NCBI RefSeq assembly: GCF_011170125.1
Contig: NZ_BLLN01000002.1
Location: 310,001 to 374,000, forward strand
Length of the DNA: 64,000 nucleotides
Direction: 5' to 3'
Origin: Streptomyces diastaticus subsp. diastaticus
GTDB taxonomy: Bacteria; Actinomycetota; Actinomycetes; Streptomycetales; Streptomycetaceae
Position numbers and translations under genes: made by a program
Part shown: positions 3,606-51,084 of the stretch, one piece after another
Position numbering within the stretch: position 1 is the stretch's first letter
How the letters are laid out: the number at the start of each line of letters is the position of its first letter
Notes under the pieces: generated by a model
The model's database searches: none
Seen by the model: the letters and a program-made list of their open reading frames with translations, nothing else
Told to the model about the DNA's origin: nothing

Positions 3606-5006
3606 TCAGCGCGGGCCGAGCGTCCAGCGCGGTCCGGTGGGGCTGTCCTCGATGACCAGGCCGGACTGCTGGAGCTGGTCGCGGATGGCGTCGGCGGTCG
3701 CCCAGTCCTTGCGGGAACGGGCGGCCTCGCGCTGGTCGAGGACGAGACGGACGAGGGTGTCGACGGCGCCGTGCAGGTCCTCGCCGCGGTCCGCCTCCCC
3801 CGCCCAGTGCGGGTCGTGCGGGTCGAGGCCGAGGACGCCGAGCATCGCGCGGACCTCGGCGAGGCGGGCGACGGCGGCTTCCTTGTCGTCGGCGGCCAGC
3901 GCCGAGTTGCCCTGGCGGACCGTGGTGTGGATGACGGCGAGGGCCTGCGGCACGCCCAGGTCCTCGTCCATCGCCTCGGCGAAGGCGGGCGGCACCTCGG
4001 CGGCCGGTGCGGGGGTCTCCCCGGCCTTCTCGGTGACGCGCTGCATGAAGCCCTCGATCCGCGCGAAGGCCGACTCGGCCTCGCGCAGCGCCTCCTCGCT
4101 GTACTCGATCATCGAGCGGTAGTGCGGGGTGCCGAGGTAGTAGCGGAGCACGATGGGGCGCCAGTGCTTGACCATCTCGGAGACGAGGACGGAGTTCCCG
4201 AGGGATTTCGACATCTTCTCGCCGGCCATGGTGACCCACGCGTTGTGCACCCAGTACGTGGCGAAGTCGTCGCCGTACGCCTTGGCCTGGGCGATCTCGT
4301 TCTCGTGGTGCGGGAAGACCAGGTCGAGGCCGCCGCCGTGGATGTCGAAGGCGGTGCCGAGGTACTTGTGGGCCATGGCCGAGCACTCCAGGTGCCAGCC
4401 GGGACGGCCGCGGCCCCAGGGCGTCTCCCAGCTCGGCTCGCCGGGCTTCGCCGCCTTCCACATGGCGAAGTCGCGCGGGTCCCGCTTGCCCGTCTCGCCC
4501 TCGCCGGAAGGCTGGCGCAGCTCGTCGAGGTCCTGGTTGGACAGCTCCAGGTACCCGGGGAAGGAGCGGACGTCGAAGTAGACGTTCCCGTCGGCCTCGT
4601 AGGCGTGGCCGCGCTCGATGAGGCCGCGCATCATCTCGATCATCTCCGGCACGTGGCCGGTGGCGCGGGGCTCGTAGGTGGGCGGGAGGCAGCCGAGCGC
4701 GTCGTAGCCGGCGTTGAAGGCGCGTTCGTTCTCGTAGCCGATCGCCCACCAGGGGCGCTCCTGCTCGGCCGACTTCTTGATGATCTTGTCGTCGATGTCC
4801 GTGACGTTGCGGACGAAGGTCACGGAGTAGCCGCGGTAGGCGAACCAGCGGCGCAGGATGTCGAAGTTGAGCCCCGAGCGGATGTGCCCGATGTGCGGCG
4901 CCGACTGCACGGTGGCACCGCAGAGGTAGATCGAGACACAGCCCGGCGTGAGGGGGGCGAAGTCACGGATCTGCCGGGCGCTGGTGTCGTACAGCCGAAT
5001 AGTCAC
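3606..5006 (-). CDS. cysS: Cysteinyl-tRNA synthetase
   Basis: 466 residues, the expected family length. The class I signatures are present: HIGH at residues 38-41 and KMSKS near residue 267, plus zinc-ligand candidates Cys29, the Cys of [10 protein letters not shown] and the HHENE motif. The enzyme charges tRNA-Cys with cysteine in the cytoplasm. The start is the GTG at 5006 ([12 protein letters not shown]), preceded by GGGAG; an in-frame extension to 5066 has no family support. The neighbours ispF and rlmB match the usual Streptomyces order, but here about 6 kb of transport and other genes sit between cysS and ispF. Confidence 0.96.
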
Positions 5007-5098
5007 GTCTCCCAGGGTAGTAGGCCCGGGGCGGTGCCCCGCCCCCCGTGCGCCAGGCGCGGCCACTTCGTGACCGAAGGGGGCGGGACGGCCGCGGC

Positions 5099-5509
5099 TC
5101 AGAGGCGGCCGACGACCTTGTCCGGGGTGACGCGGACGACGACGCGGGCGGCGTCCTGGCCGGCCGCCGGGTTGAACTCGGCGTACGGCTTGCCGGTGTA
5201 CTTCAGCGACAACTCGTCGATCAGCTCCTGGCCGCCCTCCTCGGTGACGGTGGCCCGGCCGCGGATCTCGGCGTAGGTGTACGGCTCGTCGAAGGGCTGG
5301 ACCTGCACGGTGACGCGCGGGTCGCGGCGCAGGTTCCTGGTCTTGCGCCGGTCGACGGTGGTGGAGAACAGCACGTCGTTCCCGTCGCGCTTCACCCAGA
5401 CCGGGGAGAGCTGCGGGCTGCCGTCGGGCTGGATGGTGGCGACGGTGATGAAGACCGGGGTGTCCAGCTTCTTCTTGAGGGCGTCGCTGAGCTGCGCGGT
5501 GTCACTCAT
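5099..5509 (-). CDS. PPOX-class flavin/F420-dependent oxidoreductase
   Basis: 136 residues from the ATG at 5509, which has AGGAGG 9 bases upstream. The sequence follows the split-barrel fold of the pyridoxamine 5'-phosphate oxidase-like superfamily: FITVATIQPDGSPQLSPVWV near the N-terminus, then a basic RRKTRNLRRDPRVTV segment that contacts the flavin phosphate in relatives. In actinobacteria this size class is usually annotated as a PPOX-class F420-dependent enzyme; which cofactor is used cannot be read from the sequence. It lies 49 bases after the MFS stop and may be the last gene of the transport operon, although its own strong ribosome site also allows separate expression. Confidence 0.8.
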   Translation of the reverse strand: MSDTAQLSDALKKKLDTPVFITVATIQPDGSPQLSPVWVKRDGNDVLFSTTVDRRKTRNLRRDPRVTVQVQPFDEPYTYAEIRGRATVTEEGGQELIDELSLKYTGKPYAEFNPAAGQDAARVVVRVTPDKVVGRL

Positions 5510-5558
5510 CGAGGGATGCCTCCTGGTGCGGATGGGGCCTACGGGGTCCGACTCACCC

Positions 5559-6824
5559 CTACCCCGCCGTACGCCCCGCCTCACCGGCCGCGCGCCCGGA
5601 CGGCAGCAGCCACGCCGCCGCCGCGCCGGCCAGCGGTACGGCGGCCAGCGCGCCCCACAGCACCGGCGCGGGCGCCTGGAGCAGCAGCCCGCTCGCCGCG
5701 CTCCCGCCGAGCACCGCGAGCCCCGACACCGAGGAGAGCGCCCCGGTGGCGAGCCCGAGGTGCCGGTCGTCCACCAGGTCCGGCACGAGCCCCCGGGCGG
5801 CCGGGACCAGCAGCATCTGCCCGCAGGTCAGCAGGGTGACCAGGACGGCGCCCGGGAGCAGGCCGCCCGGCCCGGCCGGGGTGGCGGGCACCAGGGCGAA
5901 CCCGGCGGCGACCAGGGCGAGCCCGGTGGTCAGCGCGGTGCGCGGGGCGAGGCGGACGGCGGCGTGCCGGGTCAGCGGGATCTGTGCGGTGACGACCAGG
6001 AGCGAGGAGAGGGCGAACAGCCAGCCGAGGGCGGCCTGGGAGCCGGTGGCCCGTGCCACTTCGGCGGGGAGCGCCAGGTAGAGCTGGTTGTAGGCGATCA
6101 GCCAGGTGCTGTAGGCGAGGCAGAGGACGAGGAAGCGCGGGTTCCGGGCGAGGTGGCGTACGCCGCCGCGGGGGCGTTCGCGGTGGACGGCGGCCCGGCG
6201 CGGCATCAGCACCGCGTGCCCGGCGAACACCGCGACGAAGACGGCGACGCCCGCCGCGCAGGCGGCACGGAAGCCCCAGTCGCCGCCGGCGGCGAGCAGC
6301 AGCGAGCCCAGCAGCGGTCCGAGGAAGGCCCCGGCCTGCCCGGCGGCCGAGAAGACGGCCAGGGTGCGGGCGCGGGCGGTGCCGTCGGCCTGTTCGCGGT
6401 GGACGGCCTCGCGGGCGGTCTCGGACTCCACCGCCGGGGAGAACAGGGCGGCGGCGAAGCCGATCAGCAGCACGGCGGCGACGACGGTGACGGTGGTGGC
6501 GGCGAAGGCGAGCCAGGCGAAGCCCGCGATCCGCAGCACGCATCCGGCGAGCACCACGGGTCGGGGCCCGTACCGGTCGGTGAGGGCGCCGCCGACCACG
6601 AAGAGGCCCTGCTGGCTGAAGGTCCGCAGTCCGAGGACGAGTCCGACCAGCCAGCCGGCCATGCCGAGGCCGTCGCCGAGGTGGGTGGCGAGGTAGGGCA
6701 GCACGGCGTAGAAGCCGGTGTTGAAGGCGAACTGGGTCCCGGCGAGCAGCCGCAGGTACGGCGGCAGGCCGGTGACCTCGCGGAGGCTGGAGGTGGCCGG
6801 GCGGAGGCCGGTGCCGGTGGTCAT
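5559..6824 (-). CDS. MFS transporter, probable exporter of the SBP/permease operon
   Basis: 421 residues with about 12 hydrophobic segments. The loop between segments 2 and 3 carries the MFS signature (GGALTDRYGPRP). Its ATG at 6824 overlaps the TGA of the upstream permease (ATGA), so the two are translationally coupled. Coupling of a family-5 solute-binding protein, a peptide/nickel-type permease and an MFS exporter recalls metallophore systems in which the MFS protein exports the free ligand and the ABC system imports the metal complex. That role is inference from context; a drug or peptide exporter is the alternative. Confidence 0.82.
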   Translation of the reverse strand: MTTGTGLRPATSSLREVTGLPPYLRLLAGTQFAFNTGFYAVLPYLATHLGDGLGMAGWLVGLVLGLRTFSQQGLFVVGGALTDRYGPRPVVLAGCVLRIAGFAWLAFAATTVTVVAAVLLIGFAAALFSPAVESETAREAVHREQADGTARARTLAVFSAAGQAGAFLGPLLGSLLLAAGGDWGFRAACAAGVAVFVAVFAGHAVLMPRRAAVHRERPRGGVRHLARNPRFLVLCLAYSTWLIAYNQLYLALPAEVARATGSQAALGWLFALSSLLVVTAQIPLTRHAAVRLAPRTALTTGLALVAAGFALVPATPAGPGGLLPGAVLVTLLTCGQMLLVPAARGLVPDLVDDRHLGLATGALSSVSGLAVLGGSAASGLLLQAPAPVLWGALAAVPLAGAAAAWLLPSGRAAGEAGRTAG

Positions 6825-8572
6825 GCGGCCTCGTGGGCGGTGGGGGCGGCGGTCACGGTGTCGGCGCCGGTGCGGCCGCGTACGGCGGCGGTCACCAGGA
6901 CGGCCAGCGCGCCGAGCACGGCGAGCGAGGCGGCCGGAGCGAGGACCGCCCAGGGGGCGCGTTCGACGTACGGCATGTTCTCCGAGAGCATCCGGCCCCA
7001 CTCGGGGGCGGGCGGCTGGGTGCCCAGGCCGAGGAAGCCGAGGGCGGCGAGGGCCAGGGCGAGCGCGGGTGTCCGGAGCAGGGCGTGCCGGGTGACGGGC
7101 GGCAGCACGGCGGGGAGCAGGTGGCGGCGGAGCAGGTGGGCGGGGCCGGCGCCGAGGGAGCAGGCGGCGGCGAGGTGGGGCGCGGCCCGCTCCTGGACGT
7201 ACAGGGCCTCGGTGTGGGCGGCGAGCGGTGCCCAGGCCACGGCGGCGACGGCGGCGGCCGCGCCCCAGGGCCCGGGCCCGGCGACGGCGGCGGTGAGCAG
7301 CCCGGCGAGGACGGCGGGCAGCGCGTTGACCGTCTCGGTGAGGGCGCCCGCCCGAAGGAACCCCGCGATCAGCCCGAGCAGCAGCGCGACGGCGGCGACG
7401 GCGAACGCCAGCAGCACGGTACGGGCGGCGCCGTGGCCGAGGCGGGCCAGCACGTCACGCCCGAGCGCGTCGGTGCCGAACGGGTGCGCGGCCGAGGGCG
7501 GCAGCAGCCGGGCGGCGGCGTCGACGTGCAGCGGGTCGCGGGCCAGTCCCGCGACGAGGACGGCGCAGAACAGGACGGCGAGCACGACGGCCCCCACCGC
7601 GACGCCCGTGCGGGTGGGCAGCCGGGGCGCGACCAGCGCGGGCAGCGCCCGGTCGGTGAGGGCCGGGCCGAGCAGCACCCGGGAGAGCAGGCGTACGGCG
7701 AGGGCGGCCACCAGCCCCGTCAGCAGCAGCATCAGCACGGCGGCCTGGAGGACGGGCAGGTCCTGGGCGAGGGCGCCCGCCAGGGCGGTGGAGCCGAGCC
7801 CGGGGACGCTGAAGAGGGTCTCGACGGCGACCGCGCTGCCGGTCAGGCCGACCACGACCAGGCCGCCCTGCGGCAGCAGGCCCGGCAGGGTACGGCGCAG
7901 GGCGTGCCTGGCGATCCGGGACGGGGGCAGCCCGGCGGCGGTGGCGGCCTTGGCCCAGGGCTCGGCGAAGGCGGCCGGGAGCGCGTCGTCGAGGAGGCGG
8001 CCGAGCAGGGCCCCGGCGGGCACGCCCATGGCGAGGGCGGGCAGCACGGCCTGGGCGGGGGTGCCCCAGCCGAGCGCCGGGAACCACCCGAGGTGGACCG
8101 CGAAGACCGTGGCCAGCACGGCGGCCAGCAGGAACTCGGGGAGTGCGGCGAGGACGGCGGCGAGCACCCCGGCCCGCGTGGTGGCGGTCTCGCGGCGGGC
8201 GCCCCGGCGCAGGGTGCGGGCGCTGAGCGCGAGGGCGAGCGGCACGGCGAGCGCCAGCGAGGCGCCCATCAGCGACAGCGAGGTGGTGAGGGCGGCCGTG
8301 ACGTCCGGGCCGACCGGCTGCCCGGAGACCCAGGAGGTGCCGAGGTCGCCGTGGAGCAGCCCGCCGGCCCACCGGCCGAGGACGTGTCCGGGCCCGCCGT
8401 CGAGGCCGGTCTCGGCGCGGATGGCGTCGAGCACCTCGGAGGTGGGCTGCCGGTCGCTGTAGCGGGCGTGCAGGATCGTCAGCGCCGGGTCGGTCGTGGT
8501 CAGCCACGGCAGCAGGCCGATCAGGGCGAGGACGGCGAGCAGGGTGAGGGCTCGCCCGGCGAAATGCTTCAC
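6821..8572 (-). CDS. Fused two-domain ABC permease, dipeptide/nickel type
   Basis: 583 residues that look like a DppB-like and a DppC-like permease joined end to end. The N-terminal half starts with a membrane segment and a periplasmic loop (DGGPGHVLGRWAGGLLHGDLGTS), as in DppB/NikB, followed by a permease domain (about 90-295). The second half opens with a new membrane segment near residue 320 and the motif HPFGTDALGRDVLARL, diagnostic of DppC/NikC, then a second permease domain (about 385-560). One polypeptide therefore supplies the whole channel. It begins 22 bases after the solute-binding gene stop. No ATP-binding subunit is encoded anywhere nearby, which is unusual. Confidence 0.85.
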   Translation of the reverse strand: MKHFAGRALTLLAVLALIGLLPWLTTTDPALTILHARYSDRQPTSEVLDAIRAETGLDGGPGHVLGRWAGGLLHGDLGTSWVSGQPVGPDVTAALTTSLSLMGASLALAVPLALALSARTLRRGARRETATTRAGVLAAVLAALPEFLLAAVLATVFAVHLGWFPALGWGTPAQAVLPALAMGVPAGALLGRLLDDALPAAFAEPWAKAATAAGLPPSRIARHALRRTLPGLLPQGGLVVVGLTGSAVAVETLFSVPGLGSTALAGALAQDLPVLQAAVLMLLLTGLVAALAVRLLSRVLLGPALTDRALPALVAPRLPTRTGVAVGAVVLAVLFCAVLVAGLARDPLHVDAAARLLPPSAAHPFGTDALGRDVLARLGHGAARTVLLAFAVAAVALLLGLIAGFLRAGALTETVNALPAVLAGLLTAAVAGPGPWGAAAAVAAVAWAPLAAHTEALYVQERAAPHLAAACSLGAGPAHLLRRHLLPAVLPPVTRHALLRTPALALALAALGFLGLGTQPPAPEWGRMLSENMPYVERAPWAVLAPAASLAVLGALAVLVTAAVRGRTGADTVTAAPTAHEAA

Positions 8573-8594
8573 GTCGGTCGCGGGGGCGGGCCGG

Positions 8595-10169
8595 TCAGCG
8601 CAGCCGGGTGTCGGCGGTGATCAGGCGGCGCTCCATCGGGTCGAGGGCGACCCCGGCGACCTTCCCGGAGTCGAAGCCCTGCACGAACCGTTCGTGGACC
8701 AGCGGCACGGCGGCGTCGGCCCCGAGGATCTTCGCCTCGGCCCTCATCTCGGCGGTGTGCCGCGCCGTCAGCCCGTCCGCCCCGGCGGCCTTCGCCACCG
8801 CCTCGTCGACGCCCTGGTCGCAGAGCTGGGAGATGTTGAAGCTGCCCTCGCAGGTGAAGTCGGAGCCGAGGTAGGAGACGGGGTCGGCGGTGTCGAGCAG
8901 GGTGTTGCGGGCCTGGATGAAGGCGTCGTACCTGCCCGCCAGCGCGTCCGCCTCCATCTGCGCGTAGTCCCGCACGTACTGCTTGACGGTGAAGCCGCGC
9001 GCCTCCAACTGCTGCTGCACGGCCGAGGCGACCTCGGGCAGCTCCGGGCGGTTGGTGTACGTGGCGAGCACGATCTGCTTCGTCTTCGCCACCTCGGCCC
9101 TGCCCGCGGGCTCGGCTCGGCCCTCGGGCGCCTCGCGCGCGTCGGCGGCCCACGGCACACCGGGCCCGAGCAGGCCCCGCGCGGTGTCGGCCCGGCCCTC
9201 GTAGACCCCGTCGACCAGCGCCTTGGAGTCGATCGCGGCCCGGGCGGCGGCGCGGATCGCCGGGTCGGCGAAGGCGCCGCGCCCGGTGTTCAGGTACAGC
9301 GTGTTGGTGCGCGCGGTCGGCACCTCGTGGATCTGCTTTTCCTCCAGCAGCGAGACCTGCGCGACGGGCACGTACTCGGCGATGTCGGCGCTGCCGGTCC
9401 GCAGCGCGTTGGCCCGCGCGGTCCCGTCGGCGACGAACTTCACGTCGACACCGGGCGCCTTCGCCTTCCCACCCCAGTACGTGTCGTTGCGTTCCAGCGT
9501 CGCGGAGACGGCGCCGTTCACCTTGGTCAGCGTGTAGGGCCCCGTGGCGTGCCCGGCCGGGTTCACCTGGGTGCCCTTGGCGCCCTTCTCGTAGGCGGCC
9601 TCGGAGAGGATGGCGAGCGAGGGGTTGGCGAGGCGCTGGGGCAGCAGCGGGTCGGCCTCGTCGGTGGTGACGCGCACGGTCCGCTCGCCCCCGGCCTCGA
9701 CGGTCAGCCGCACGTCACTCAGGACGCGCGGCCTGGGTGAGGCCGCCTGGGCGGCGGTCAGCGAGCGGACGACCGCCTCGGCGTCGACGGCCCCGCCGTC
9801 CTGGAAGCGGGCGTCGCGCAGGGTGAACTCCCAGCCCTTGTCGCCGTCCCGCCGCCACTTCGTGGCGAGCGCGGGTTCGGCGGCGCCGTCCTCGTCGATC
9901 CGGGTCAGCCCCTCGATCACCGAGAGCCGGCTGAGGGTCACCGCGTCGTCCCCGTAGGGCGACATGGCCTGCGCGGGCGGGAACGCCATGACGGCCCGCA
10001 GCCGCTGGTCGCCGCTGCCGGAGCCGCTGTCGCCGGGGGAGCCGCCACAGGCGGCGACGGGGACGAGCAGCGCGGCGGCGCCGAGCGCGAGCAGGGGGCG
10101 GCGGACGCCCGTCCGGGTGGGATTCCGGCGGGCGGACGGCGTGGAGGACGGGGAGGACTCCGAGGACAT
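8595..10169 (-). CDS. ABC transporter substrate-binding lipoprotein, family 5
   Basis: 524 residues. A basic, Ser/Pro-rich start leads into a hydrophobic signal ending in a lipobox (LLVPVAACG, Cys about residue 41), so the protein is probably lipid-anchored outside the membrane. The mature part follows the SBP family 5 pattern ([40 protein letters not shown]). Family members bind oligopeptides, nickel or metal-chelate complexes. The ATG at 10169 has AAGGT close upstream, directly next to a 23-bp palindrome of Fur/Zur type. It is the first gene of the operon with the fused permease and the MFS protein. The ligand is inferred, not proven; zinc or another metal chelate is favoured by the operator. 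Confidence 0.85.
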
Positions 10170-10180
10170 GAACGCGACCT

Positions 10181-10203
10181 TATATGAAAACGATTGTCAT
10201 ATA
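10181..10203. promoter_or_regulatory. Fur-family (Zur-like) operator before the transport operon
   Basis: A 23-bp palindrome centred on 10192 pairs at 9 of 11 positions. Its core on the minus strand is TGACAATCGTTTTCA, close to the TGAAAATCATTTTCA type recognised by actinobacterial Zur. It is far more AT-rich than its surroundings and abuts the ribosome site of the solute-binding gene, so binding should block expression directly. Confidence 0.7.
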
Positions 10204-10229
10204 ACAGGGGGTATGGGCGGACTCGCGCC

Positions 10230-10853
10230 TCAGCCGGCCACGGAATCGGCCCGGTCCCGGCGCGCGGCACCGGCCAGCCCCGCCACCGGCACCTCGAAGT
10301 GCACGATGCCCTGCCCGCCTCCGGGCAGCGCCCGCTCGTCGCAGACCTCCTCGGCGGTGGCCCGCCAGAACGCCTCGGCGCCGGGCACCGCGGGGTCGGT
10401 GTGCAGATAGACCCGCTCGTACCCGCCGGCCCGCACCGCGAAGCCGCACAGCTCCCGCACCAGACGCCGGGCCAGTCCGTGGCGCCGGTGCTCGGGACGT
10501 ACGTAGATCCGGCAGAGCTGGGCGGTACTGCCGGAGGGGAAGCGGTCGGCGACCCACTGGGGGTTGGGCGGCGCGGCGGGGCCCCGGTCGCGGACGGCGC
10601 CGGTCGCGACGATCTCCCCGTCGCGTTCGACGACGAGCAGCGTGCACCGCTCGGGCTCCAGGTAGGCGGCGGCCGGGTCGATGATGTCGGCGTGCCAGCG
10701 GGGCACGTAACCGGAGCGCAGATCCCGGTAGACCGTGTCGAGCATCACGGCCCGCGCTCCCGGCACATCGGCCTCGGACGCGGTCCGCAGCACGTACTCG
10801 TCCCGCCCCGCCCGCTCCCGGACACCCGCTTCCACTCCGGCCACCACGGTCAT
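10230..10853 (-). CDS. GNAT family N-acetyltransferase
   Basis: 207 residues from the ATG at 10853 (GGCGGG just upstream). The acetyl-CoA binding core is visible: a beta strand ending AQLCRIYVRPEHRRHGLARRLV, which contains the R/Q-x-x-G-x-A pyrophosphate loop, about residues 125-145. The N-terminus (LRTASEADVPGARAVM) has the usual start of a GNAT domain. The substrate is unknown. It precedes the metal-transport-like operon on the same strand but is separated from it by the palindromic operator. Confidence 0.8.
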   Translation of the reverse strand: MTVVAGVEAGVRERAGRDEYVLRTASEADVPGARAVMLDTVYRDLRSGYVPRWHADIIDPAAAYLEPERCTLLVVERDGEIVATGAVRDRGPAAPPNPQWVADRFPSGSTAQLCRIYVRPEHRRHGLARRLVRELCGFAVRAGGYERVYLHTDPAVPGAEAFWRATAEEVCDERALPGGGQGIVHFEVPVAGLAGAARRDRADSVAG

Positions 10854-11003
10854 CCCGCCTGCCACCAGCCTCTCGTCAGCCACACGAACCTGCCGTACCA
10901 GCGTACGTGCAACCCATGTGCAGGAGCGGGTCAGGGGAGCGCCCCGCAGCCGACCCGGAGGGAACCATTCCGCCCTGTCGGTGCCGACTGCCACCCTGCC
11001 CCC

Positions 11004-11282
11004 ATGGACAGCGACGACGAGCGGCTCCTGCGCGGCCGGGTCTACGGCCACGACCCCGCCGCCCCCGAGGCCTCCCCCCTCCCCGGCCACCACTACGCCG
11101 AACTCGTCGGCGGCCCGCTGGACGGCCTCCTCCTCGACATCACCGGCCACCCGCCCACCACCCGCCGGCAAGGCGCCGCCCTCCCCACCGCCCTCAGCAG
11201 GTACGGCCCCGACGGCCGCTCCCTCTACAAGCCACGCCCCACAGCCCCGTCCCGCTGGGACTGGCAGGGAGACACCCGCTGA
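11004..11282 (+). CDS. Small conserved-type hypothetical protein
   Basis: 92 residues, hydrophilic, with the core ELVGGPLDGLLLDITG in the middle and an acidic start (MDSDDERLLRG). It resembles small uncharacterised actinobacterial proteins with a GGPLDG core; no function is known. No clear ribosome site precedes the ATG at 11004. It is divergent from the GNAT gene, and the 150-base gap between them should hold both promoters. Confidence 0.5.
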   Translation: MDSDDERLLRGRVYGHDPAAPEASPLPGHHYAELVGGPLDGLLLDITGHPPTTRRQGAALPTALSRYGPDGRSLYKPRPTAPSRWDWQGDTR

Positions 11283-11478
11283 CCGCCCCGCCCCGCCAGA
11301 ACCCCGGCCGGGGGCCCCTCGACCCGGCCCACCCCGGCCCGGTTGGCGAAACCGACCACCCAGCCGAACCGATCCCAGCCCGGCCGGCGCGTGAGGCCAC
11401 CCCACCCCAGCCCGGGCGGGCGAGACCGGTCACCCCGCCCAGCCGGACGCAGCCCACCCCGGCCGGGCGGAGCCGGGC
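11283..11478. other. Intergenic, C/G-biased, no gene seen
   Basis: About 200 bases between two convergent genes, made of many short CCGGCC- and CCACCC-like words. Strong composition bias produces long open frames on both strands, but none has a ribosome site or a recognisable protein. Confidence 0.5.
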
Positions 11479-11994
11479 TCACCCGGCCCGGTACACCAAG
11501 GCGGTGGCGATCGCCGCCAGCCCTTCCCCGCGCCCTGTGAGCCCGAGCCCGTCGGTCGTCGTCCCGGACACGGAGACGGGTGCCCCCACCGCCCCGGACA
11601 GGGCTGCCACGGCCTCACCGCGCCGCTTCCCCACCTTGGGCCGCAACCCGACGACCTGTACGGCCACGTTCCCGATCCCGAACCCCTCGGCCCGCACGAT
11701 CCGCGCGGCCTCGCCGAGCAGAGCGACCCCGGAGGCCCCGGCCCACTCGGGCCGCGAGGTCCCGAAGTGCGCCCCGAGGTCCCCGAGGCCGGCGGCCGAG
11801 AAGAGCGCGTCGCACGCCGCGTGCGCGGCCACGTCCCCGTCGGAGTGCCCGGCGAGCCCGAACTCCTCACCCTCCCAGAGCAGCCCGGCGCACCACAGTT
11901 CGCGCCCCCGCTCGAAGGCGTGCACGTCGGTCCCGATCCCGACCAGCGGCATCACGAACCCGGCCCCGTCCCGCGGCCCCGCCTCAGTACCCAT
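11479..11994 (-). CDS. ispF: 2-C-methyl-D-erythritol 2,4-cyclodiphosphate synthase
   Basis: 171 residues. The zinc-binding motif is at the start (GIGTDVHAF, Asp23 and His25), followed by [19 protein letters not shown] and the C-terminal [17 protein letters not shown]. The enzyme closes the cyclodiphosphate ring in the MEP isoprenoid pathway, two steps after IspD. AGGAGG sits 7 bases before the ATG at 11994, which decides the start over the Met at 11952. It overlaps the ispD end by 11 bases, so the two are translationally coupled. Confidence 0.95.
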
Positions 11995-50643: not shown

Positions 50644-51084
50644 TCAGTCCCCGGCCGCCTGCGCGCGCTTCTCGCCGCACGCCCCGCACCGGCCGAAGAT
50701 CGCGAAGTGCTTCATGTCGGTGTCGAAGCCGAAGCTCTCGCGGAGCTGGTCGGCGAACCCCTCGACCACCGAGACGTCCGCCTCGATCACCTCGGAGCAG
50801 TCCCGGCAGACCAGGTGGATGTGGTGGTGCCGGTCGGCGAGGTGGTAGGTCGGGGCGCCGTGGCCGAGGTGGGCGTGGCTGACCAGGCCCAGTTCCTCCA
50901 GGAGTTCCAGGGTCCGGTAGACCGTGGAGATGTTGACGCCCGCGGCGGTCTTGCGGACCTCGCCGAGGATGTCGTCCGGAGTCGCGTGCTCCAGCTTGTC
51001 GACGGCCTCCAGCACCAGCTGGCGCTGGGGTGTCAGTCGGTAGCCGCGCTGCCGCAGGTCGCTCTTCCAGTCGATGCTCACCAC
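50644..51084 (-). CDS. nur: Nickel-responsive Fur-family regulator
   Basis: 146 residues. The winged HTH (RLTPQRQLVLEAVDKLEHATPDDILGEVRKTAAGVNISTVYRTLELLEELGLV) and the dimerisation domain with CRDC and CGAC (structural zinc) are present, plus HHHIHLVC and DRHHHIHLV histidines that form the nickel site in Nur. The sequence matches Streptomyces Nur almost residue by residue in my memory. Nur with nickel represses nik nickel uptake and sodF and activates sodN expression indirectly. Starts at the GTG at 51084 (or the next GTG, 51081). Confidence 0.92.
   Translation of the reverse strand: MVSIDWKSDLRQRGYRLTPQRQLVLEAVDKLEHATPDDILGEVRKTAAGVNISTVYRTLELLEELGLVSHAHLGHGAPTYHLADRHHHIHLVCRDCSEVIEADVSVVEGFADQLRESFGFDTDMKHFAIFGRCGACGEKRAQAAGD

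What the first reader, a model, noticed from the sequence alone, without database searches (positions are those of the whole stretch)
5559..10204. Zur-type operator in front of a metallophore-like transport operon that lacks an ATPase
Seen: a 23-bp palindrome (9 of 11 pairs, centre 10192) directly before a family-5 binding lipoprotein, then a fused permease and a coupled MFS gene; no ATP-binding protein within the window. Known: in metallophore systems of other bacteria (Cnt, Cpt types) a binding protein, permeases, ATPases and an MFS exporter serve one chelator. Inference: this may be a zinc-repressed route that exports a chelator and re-imports its metal complex, borrowing an ATPase from elsewhere, and it is inserted between ispF and cysS.
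Basis: partly seen in the sequence, partly recalled or inferred. Interest (0 to 1): 0.78.

Follow-up and report, generated by a model that had tools for sequence, protein, structure and literature searches.

The report
Zinc-switched importer without its own motor
A soil bacterium carries a predicted zinc-controlled importer whose energy-supplying part is missing from the gene set, and relatives show that this gap is old and stable, so the importer probably borrows its motor from another transporter.

Summary
A 15-bp Zur box (10185-10199) lies just before a family-5 binding lipoprotein, followed by a fused two-domain permease and a translationally coupled MFS gene, between ispF and PPOX-cysS in a Streptomyces. 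The six other places in this genome with at most 2 mismatches to this box or to the symmetric consensus all lie at zinc-regulon genes, and a matrix built from those six alone finds the box in all 40 clade-A loci with readable upstream DNA.

The lack of ATPases is shared by a whole clade. Relatives that have both ATPases are mostly also behind Zur boxes, and outside Streptomyces mostly include the MFS gene, so a complete Zur-controlled importer plus MFS is the likelier ancestor. The permease keeps its ATPase-coupling loops.

Best reading: Zur-repressed uptake of a zinc chelate, energised by a shared Dpp/Opp-type ATPase pair. Export of a self-made chelator is not supported: no linked or consistently co-occurring biosynthesis cluster was found. 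Zur binding, zinc response, substrate and ATPase partner are untested.

The parts
10185..10199 (.). Zur box, 15-bp 7-1-7 core TGAAAACGATTGTCA (extended palindrome 10181-10203)
   Evidence: 0-1 mismatch in 19 of 20 fetched orthologous loci, the other (L114) has no upstream DNA (L114 seen as cut)
8595..10169 (-). Family-5 solute-binding lipoprotein, NikA-like fold
6821..8572 (-). Fused permease, NikB-like and NikC-like halves in one chain
7871..7963 (-). First ATPase-coupling (EAA) loop of the permease, residues 204-234
7100..7192 (-). Second ATPase-coupling (EAA) loop of the permease, residues 461-491
5559..6824 (-). MFS transporter (weakly MdtH-like, below that model's cut-off), 4-nt overlap with the permease gene
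10230..10853 (-). GNAT acetyltransferase, part of the inserted block and of most ATPase-less relatives (start codon inferred)
   Evidence: PF00583 (on a stretch one codon longer); present in 39 of 43 clade-A loci, 3 of the 4 misses being cut contigs

Best explanation
A Zur-repressed uptake module for a zinc chelate. When zinc is scarce Zur leaves the operator, which lies 16-30 bp before the binding-protein start, and the lipoprotein, the fused permease and the MFS protein are made. The lipoprotein captures a zinc-bound small chelator and the permease brings it in, driven by a Dpp/Opp-type ATPase pair encoded elsewhere and shared with another transporter. After release of zinc the chelator would be acetylated by the GNAT and/or expelled by the MFS protein. 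Shown by sequence: operator and its conservation, gene set, kinship with complete operons, retained coupling loops, no ATPase beside the operon. Inferred: repression, chelate as substrate, the shared ATPase, and the roles of GNAT and MFS.
For: Box: besides the window, six places in the genome have at most 2 mismatches to the box or to TGAAAATSATTTTCA: two at znuACB (zur beside it), two in an island with a CobW-type gene, a second znu set and AztD, one before L33, one before L31-CobW. A matrix from those six alone finds a site in the expected stretch of 40 of 43 A, 19 of 25 B, 17 of 17 D and 2 of 2 Saccharopolyspora loci, against 3 hits in about 1,514 kb of the rest of the loci tested. Complete relatives: ATPase pair in all 17 D loci (the class is defined by it) and in 15 of 20 class-wide loci viewed, 12 of these 15 with a same-strand MFS. 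ATPase state changes 3 times on the tree. Coupling loops: mean identity 0.66 in A (rest 0.76) and 0.66 in D (rest 0.73). All 14 oligo_HPY ATPase matches in the genome lie within about 5 kb of another family-5 SBP, so no orphan pair of that type is seen. Fold nearest to chelate-binding NikA. Precedents: FhuC energising ATPase-less Isd/Hts/Sir (PMC10147376, passages); Zur-controlled cluster-C transporter pden1341-1344 in Paracoccus (PMC5387054, passages).
Confidence: 0.55

Rival explanations
1. One reading: the MFS protein exports a chelator made by the same cell, and the binding protein and permease bring its zinc complex back.
For: The MFS gene is in 12 of 15 ATPase-bearing loci of the class-wide set and in 37 of 41 clade-A loci with downstream DNA. 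MFS plus Opp-type importer is one of two main layouts of opine zincophore clusters (PMC7438024, passages). A decarboxylase, PALP, SufS-like and methyltransferase cluster with Zur-like boxes lies elsewhere in this genome.
Against: That cluster's decarboxylase is in 2 of 23 clade-A genomes, and 2 of 30 homologous loci viewed have a box over 16 bits near it. MFS is absent in 4 of 41 clade-A loci and 16 of 17 clade-D loci.
Confidence: 0.13
2. Zinc-regulated uptake of a peptide or amino-acid-like nutrient rather than a metal chelate, for example zinc-binding peptides; the metal need not travel through.
Against: The best sequence match and the top fold match are nickel/chelate-type proteins, and the operator is zinc-type in A, D and most B loci.
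Confidence: 0.17
3. The energy comes from a UgpC/MalK-type shared sugar ATPase (MsiK of Streptomyces; that this gene is msiK is recalled) whose gene lies about 9 kb from the operon.
For: G000:C2:305434-306570 passes the UgpC cut-off, 464.3 of 432 bits. A gene with a very similar start is in 13 of 20 clade-A loci fetched (cluster 14).
Against: Clade-B and C operons mostly lie elsewhere and also lack ATPases, so the linkage may be chance; complete relatives have OppD/F-like pairs.
Confidence: 0.06
4. The module has become ATP-independent, with acetylation or the MFS protein supplying the driving force.
For: GNAT was found in 0 of 32 ATPase-bearing loci and in 70 of 83 ATPase-less ones; it goes with two of the three ATPase-less lines.
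Against: Coupling loops are about as conserved as in ATPase-bearing clades; only 2-3 independent pairs, so no significance is possible; clade C and L363 lack both; clade B was defined partly by GNAT presence.
Confidence: 0.05
5. A decaying remnant that lost its ATPases and no longer transports.
For: Missing ATPases; 6 of the first 21 (full-length clade-A) matches listed show one TGA inside the matched stretch, which may be the gene's own stop.
Against: Operator kept in 40 of 40 readable A loci; clade-wide retention at 69-81% identity to the window's permease.
Confidence: 0.04

Closest known systems
Cnt staphylopine system (CntA-BC-DF plus MFS CntE; gene letters partly recalled)
   Same: Family-5 binding protein, two Opp-type permease domains, MFS transporter; complete relatives also have two ATPases
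   Different: Permeases fused; no ATPase here; no cntKLM-like genes recognised beside it; GNAT added; Zur box; CntA model at 56.9 of 800 bits
NikABCDE nickel/chelate importer
   Same: NikA fold and NikB/NikC-like permease halves
   Different: Zur-type operator, fused permease, no NikDE, MFS and GNAT attached, scores far below Nik cut-offs
FhuC/MsiK type shared-ATPase systems
   Same: Binding protein and permease without their own ATPase, coupling loops kept
   Different: The cases named in PMC10147376 (passages) are type II iron-chelate or carbohydrate type I importers; this is Opp/Nik-type, and its complete relatives use two ATPases; partner unknown
Paracoccus denitrificans pden1338-1344 Zur-regulated cluster-C transporter
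   Same: Zur-controlled family-5/Opp-type transporter of unknown substrate (PMC5387054, passages)
   Different: Gram-negative, COG0523 gene in the operon; no MFS or GNAT mentioned in the passages read

Membership tests
Streptomyces Zur regulon | 7-1-7 operator tGaNNatSatNNtCa close to the start codon | tested here: met
   1 mismatch, 16-30 bp upstream
Streptomyces Zur regulon | Site resembles operators of zinc-regulon genes in the same genome | tested here: met
   26.8 bits under a matrix from six other sites, which score 20.6-28.5
Streptomyces Zur regulon | A zur gene in the genome | tested here: met
   FUR-family gene beside znuACB, G000:C3:217475-217981; one of 4 FUR-family matches
Streptomyces Zur regulon | Zur binds and represses in vivo | not testable with these tools
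   needs EMSA, footprint, transcript data
Cnt-type metallophore system | Opp-type SBP and permeases with two ATPases in one operon | tested here: not met
   No ATPase in the operon, none beside it in the 20 orthologous loci; present in relatives
Cnt-type metallophore system | MFS or EamA exporter in the operon | tested here: met
   MFS 5559-6824, 4-nt overlap; direction of transport not shown
Cnt-type metallophore system | Opine zincophore biosynthesis gene (CntM) | tested here: inconclusive
   PF10100 finds nothing in this genome, but it rang in none of the 14 control genomes either
Cnt-type metallophore system | CntA curated model cut-off | tested here: not met
   56.9 bits, cut-off 800
NikABCDE | NikA curated model cut-off | tested here: not met
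   185.9 bits, cut-off 600
Shared-ATPase importer | SBP and permease conserved without a dedicated ATPase | tested here: met
   ATPase beside the permease in 0 of 43 clade-A loci (3 pairs of loci are identical)
Shared-ATPase importer | Permease keeps ATPase-coupling loops | tested here: met
Shared-ATPase importer | A named ATPase physically and functionally serves it | not testable with these tools
   needs two-hybrid and deletions

The most novel reading that the evidence does not exclude
In this branch of a zinc-controlled chelate importer the ATPase pair was replaced, on separate occasions, by a GNAT acetyltransferase: uptake no longer depends on ATP hydrolysis at the permease but is pulled by acetylation of the incoming chelator, with the MFS protein expelling the acetylated product. 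This would be a metal-chelate importer of ABC ancestry working as a group-translocation or exchange system.
Probability: 0.05. Interest if true: 0.9.

Novelty: new variant of a known kind. Interest (0 to 1): 0.55.

Why it matters
The passages read list znuABC, alternative ribosomal proteins, a COG0523 protein and coelibactin or EDDS clusters as Zur targets in actinomycetes (PMC5472717, PMC6103462); none of the passages read names a family-5/fused-permease/MFS module. If the prediction holds, part of the genus Streptomyces, S. griseus included, takes up a zinc chelate by a route I found undescribed. Repeated absence of a dedicated ATPase would extend the shared-ATPase principle from sugar and iron-chelate importers to Opp/Nik-type importers, and makes the question of which ATPase is used directly testable in a laboratory streptomycete.

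Tried and rejected
Biosynthesis link: the decarboxylase, PALP, SufS-like and methyltransferase cluster with Zur-like boxes (G000:C5:562.7-567.4 kb) looked like the missing chelator pathway. Its decarboxylase is in 48 of 199 genus genomes and 2 of 23 clade-A genomes (expected 5.5, Fisher p 0.07), so I rejected it as the dedicated partner of this operon. It does co-occur with clade-D importers, 16 of 29 (expected 7.0, p 9e-5). None of these tests is corrected for relatedness.

ATPase partner: no site over 13 bits was found in the stretches viewed around the other family-5 SBPs and ATPases (L001-L016 except L010, which is the window's own; L058-L064; L139-L158). A clade-D-type ATPase is absent from this genome (best 49%) and found in 0 of 23 clade-A genomes against 29 of 199 overall (p 0.03, uncorrected). 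No partner could be singled out. The ZnuC-type ATPases of the regulon were set aside as partners of another importer type (recalled knowledge).

Cut-offs are my own. With the nine-site matrix at 19 bits box counts were 40 of 43 A, 17 of 25 B, 0 of 8 C, 17 of 17 D and 0 of 2 Saccharopolyspora (18.7 bits each); that matrix includes ortholog-type sites. With the six-site matrix at 17 bits they were 40, 19, 0, 17 and 2. In the class-wide set 10 of 15 ATPase-bearing loci have a site over 16 bits upstream and 5 (L356, L357, L366, L370, L372) do not.

Sets overlap: three pairs of clade-A loci are the same assembly (L095/L226, L098/L229, L112/L245: identical permeases and contig lengths), so 43 loci are at most 40 distinct. 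Clades A to D were assigned by identity and by presence of ATPase and GNAT, so ATPase counts in B, C, D and GNAT counts in B, C are true by definition; the trees support A, D, C and B (without L121) as clades (one search agrees with weaker support for A; quick method, SH-aLRT only). The chosen outgroup rows did not enter the tree, so roots are midpoints and 'loss' rather than gain of ATPases is an inference.

The promoter scan found no sigma-70 type site in 5400-11500. No report of such a module was found in searches (open-licence full texts; hits seen as listings, some as passages). Passages of the M. avium island paper and the M. smegmatis Zur paper (PMC4298942, PMC7174638) and of PMC12161575 name none either. 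The Foldseek 'pdb' library was not searched; VIA-align on Foldseek's list was used.
Full report
1. What is there. On the minus strand, downstream of ispD-ispF, lie a GNAT acetyltransferase gene (10230-10853), the palindrome at 10181-10203, an SBP_bac_5 lipoprotein gene (8595-10169; lipobox-like VAAC, read by eye), a 583-residue fused permease (6821-8572) whose halves match NikB-like and NikC-like models below cut-off, and an MFS gene (5559-6824) that overlaps the permease stop by 4 nt; then PPOX (5099-5584) and cysS (3606-5066). The window is G000:C2:310001-374000 of a 7.08-Mb assembly; that it is a Streptomyces follows from the same-genus matches and the named relatives.

2. Is the operator real? 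The 15-bp motif from S. coelicolor ChIP-chip, tGaNNatSatNNtCa (PMC5472717, passages), matches once in the window with 1 mismatch; 0.06 expected. In the whole genome the exact box occurs once and 5 other places have 1-2 mismatches; a search with TGAAAATSATTTTCA adds one more place with 2 mismatches. These six lie at znuACB with zur beside it (two), in an island with a CobW-type gene, a second znu set and AztD (two), before an L33 gene, and before an L31 gene followed by a CobW-type gene. Places with 3 mismatches were mostly not looked at; one of those viewed, C5:722756, has no recognised zinc gene. A matrix of the six sites alone gives the window box 26.8 bits (the six score 20.6-28.5) and finds a site in the expected stretch of 40 of 43 clade-A loci; the other 3 are cut contigs. 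Outside that stretch the loci tested give 3 hits in about 1,514 kb.

3. The insertion. Of 25 same-genus loci around ispF, 3 carry the GNAT-SBP block after ispF (own, G005, G019), 20 have cysS there with or without PPOX, 1 is cut short after PPOX and 1 shows no match. So the GNAT gene came or left with the block.

4. Distribution and relatives. The permease finds matches at E up to 1e-60 in 88 of 199 genus genomes; 23 of these, two partial, are clade A at 71% identity or more. Of 20 clade-A loci fetched besides the window, 19 have GNAT, 17 MFS, 19 cysS and 0 an ATPase beside the operon (L114 has no upstream DNA). Faint ATPase matches at the edges of five of these loci lie more than 4 kb from the operon. 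With the named loci clade A has 43 loci, at most 40 distinct; GNAT is missing in 1 of 40 with upstream DNA and MFS in 4 of 41 with downstream DNA. Named carriers include S. griseus, S. californicus, S. halstedii and Streptomyces sp. SirexAA-E. Other Streptomyces loci fall into B (25; GNAT-SBP-permease, 22 with MFS, no ATPase), C (8; SBP-permease alone) and D (17; SBP-permease-ATPase-ATPase, 1 with MFS); boxes are found in 19 of 25, 0 of 8 and 17 of 17. Two Saccharopolyspora loci have GNAT-MFS-SBP-permease without ATPase. Class-wide, 28 of 394 genomes match; of 20 loci viewed, 15 have ATPase genes, 12 of these with a same-strand MFS and 10 with a site over 16 bits upstream; 2 of the 15 are Streptomyces and both have the MFS gene.

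5. Ancestry. In the permease trees A, B and C form one ATPase-less clade (SH-aLRT 96 and 99); D groups with complete operons of another family; Saccharopolyspora groups with ATPase-bearing L356 and L357; L363 is a third ATPase-less line. The minimum is three changes of ATPase state and four of GNAT. GNAT was found in 0 of 32 ATPase-bearing loci and 70 of 83 ATPase-less ones, but this rests on 2-3 independent pairs, which cannot reach significance. Long branches (L121, L356, L357, L363, L368) make single placements unsure.

6. Is the permease still an ABC permease? Both coupling loops are present; the glutamate and glycine of loop 1 and the glycine and LP of loop 2 are kept in A, B and C (loop 2's glutamate is kept in A and C, with E or Q in B, and not in D). 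Mean pairwise identity of the first 20 loop residues against the rest is 0.66/0.76 in A, 0.72/0.77 in B, 0.72/0.81 in C and 0.66/0.73 in D: similar with and without ATPases. This is the main argument for a borrowed ATPase. All 14 oligo_HPY ATPase matches in this genome lie near another family-5 SBP; the best match to the D-type ATPase is a dpp-like gene at 49%. No Zur-like site was found in the stretches viewed around them.

8. Comparison. The gene set resembles Cnt-type systems, where MFS exporter and Opp-type importer go together (PMC7438024, passages), but ATPases are missing, biosynthesis genes were not recognised, and curated CntA/NikA cut-offs are not reached. The ATPase-less state resembles FhuC- or MsiK-dependent importers (PMC10147376, passages). 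A Zur-controlled cluster-C transporter has been reported in Paracoccus (PMC5387054, passages). I found no report of this actinobacterial module in the searches listed under Tried and rejected, which cover open-licence papers only.

9. Verdict. A conserved, Zur-boxed importer branch without its own ATPases; a new variant of a known kind. My odds: Zur control about 0.93, zinc-chelate import about 0.65, a shared Dpp/Opp-type ATPase about 0.75; the joint reading 0.55.

Noticed in passing
G000:C5:562695-567436 (L159:9696-14437) and L323:9406-13455: Decarboxylase, PALP (rhodanese-like tail read by eye), SufS-like and methyltransferase genes with Zur-like boxes before the first gene and, in this genome, before the methyltransferase gene; the decarboxylase is in 48 of 199 genus genomes. 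A possible Zur-controlled small-molecule pathway; L325 also has a box before its methyltransferase gene.
   Followed up: partly
genus-wide: Clade-D importers co-occur with that decarboxylase in 16 of 29 genomes (expected 7.0), not corrected for relatedness.
   Followed up: partly
window 50644-51084: A Fur-family regulator gene lies in the window itself; it is not the znu-linked zur.
   Followed up: no
L127, L128, L130, L194, L196, L197, L201, L210: Clade C: SBP and fused permease without box, GNAT, MFS or same-strand ATPase; 5 of the 8 genomes also have B and D loci among those fetched (G007, G049, G104, G128, G159).
   Followed up: partly
L121: A divergent SBP and permease (57-61%) sit at the cysS locus beside GNAT and MFS that are 73-79% identical to the window's, and no Zur box is seen: possible in-place replacement.
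   Followed up: no
L368, L370, L372: ATPase-bearing relatives lie next to a heavy-metal P-type ATPase gene; L370 also has a TIGR03773 surface protein (for L370; the others by similarity).
   Followed up: partly
G000:C3:1033738-1035342 and C3:1352576-1354297: Two further family-5 binding proteins in this genome show no obvious permease gene in the 14-15 kb viewed (judged from gene calls and first residues only).
   Followed up: no
G000:C5:722756-722770 (L056:4757): A 3-mismatch Zur-like site of 22.1 bits lies within a called open frame, with no zinc gene recognised around it: chance or an unknown target.
   Followed up: partly
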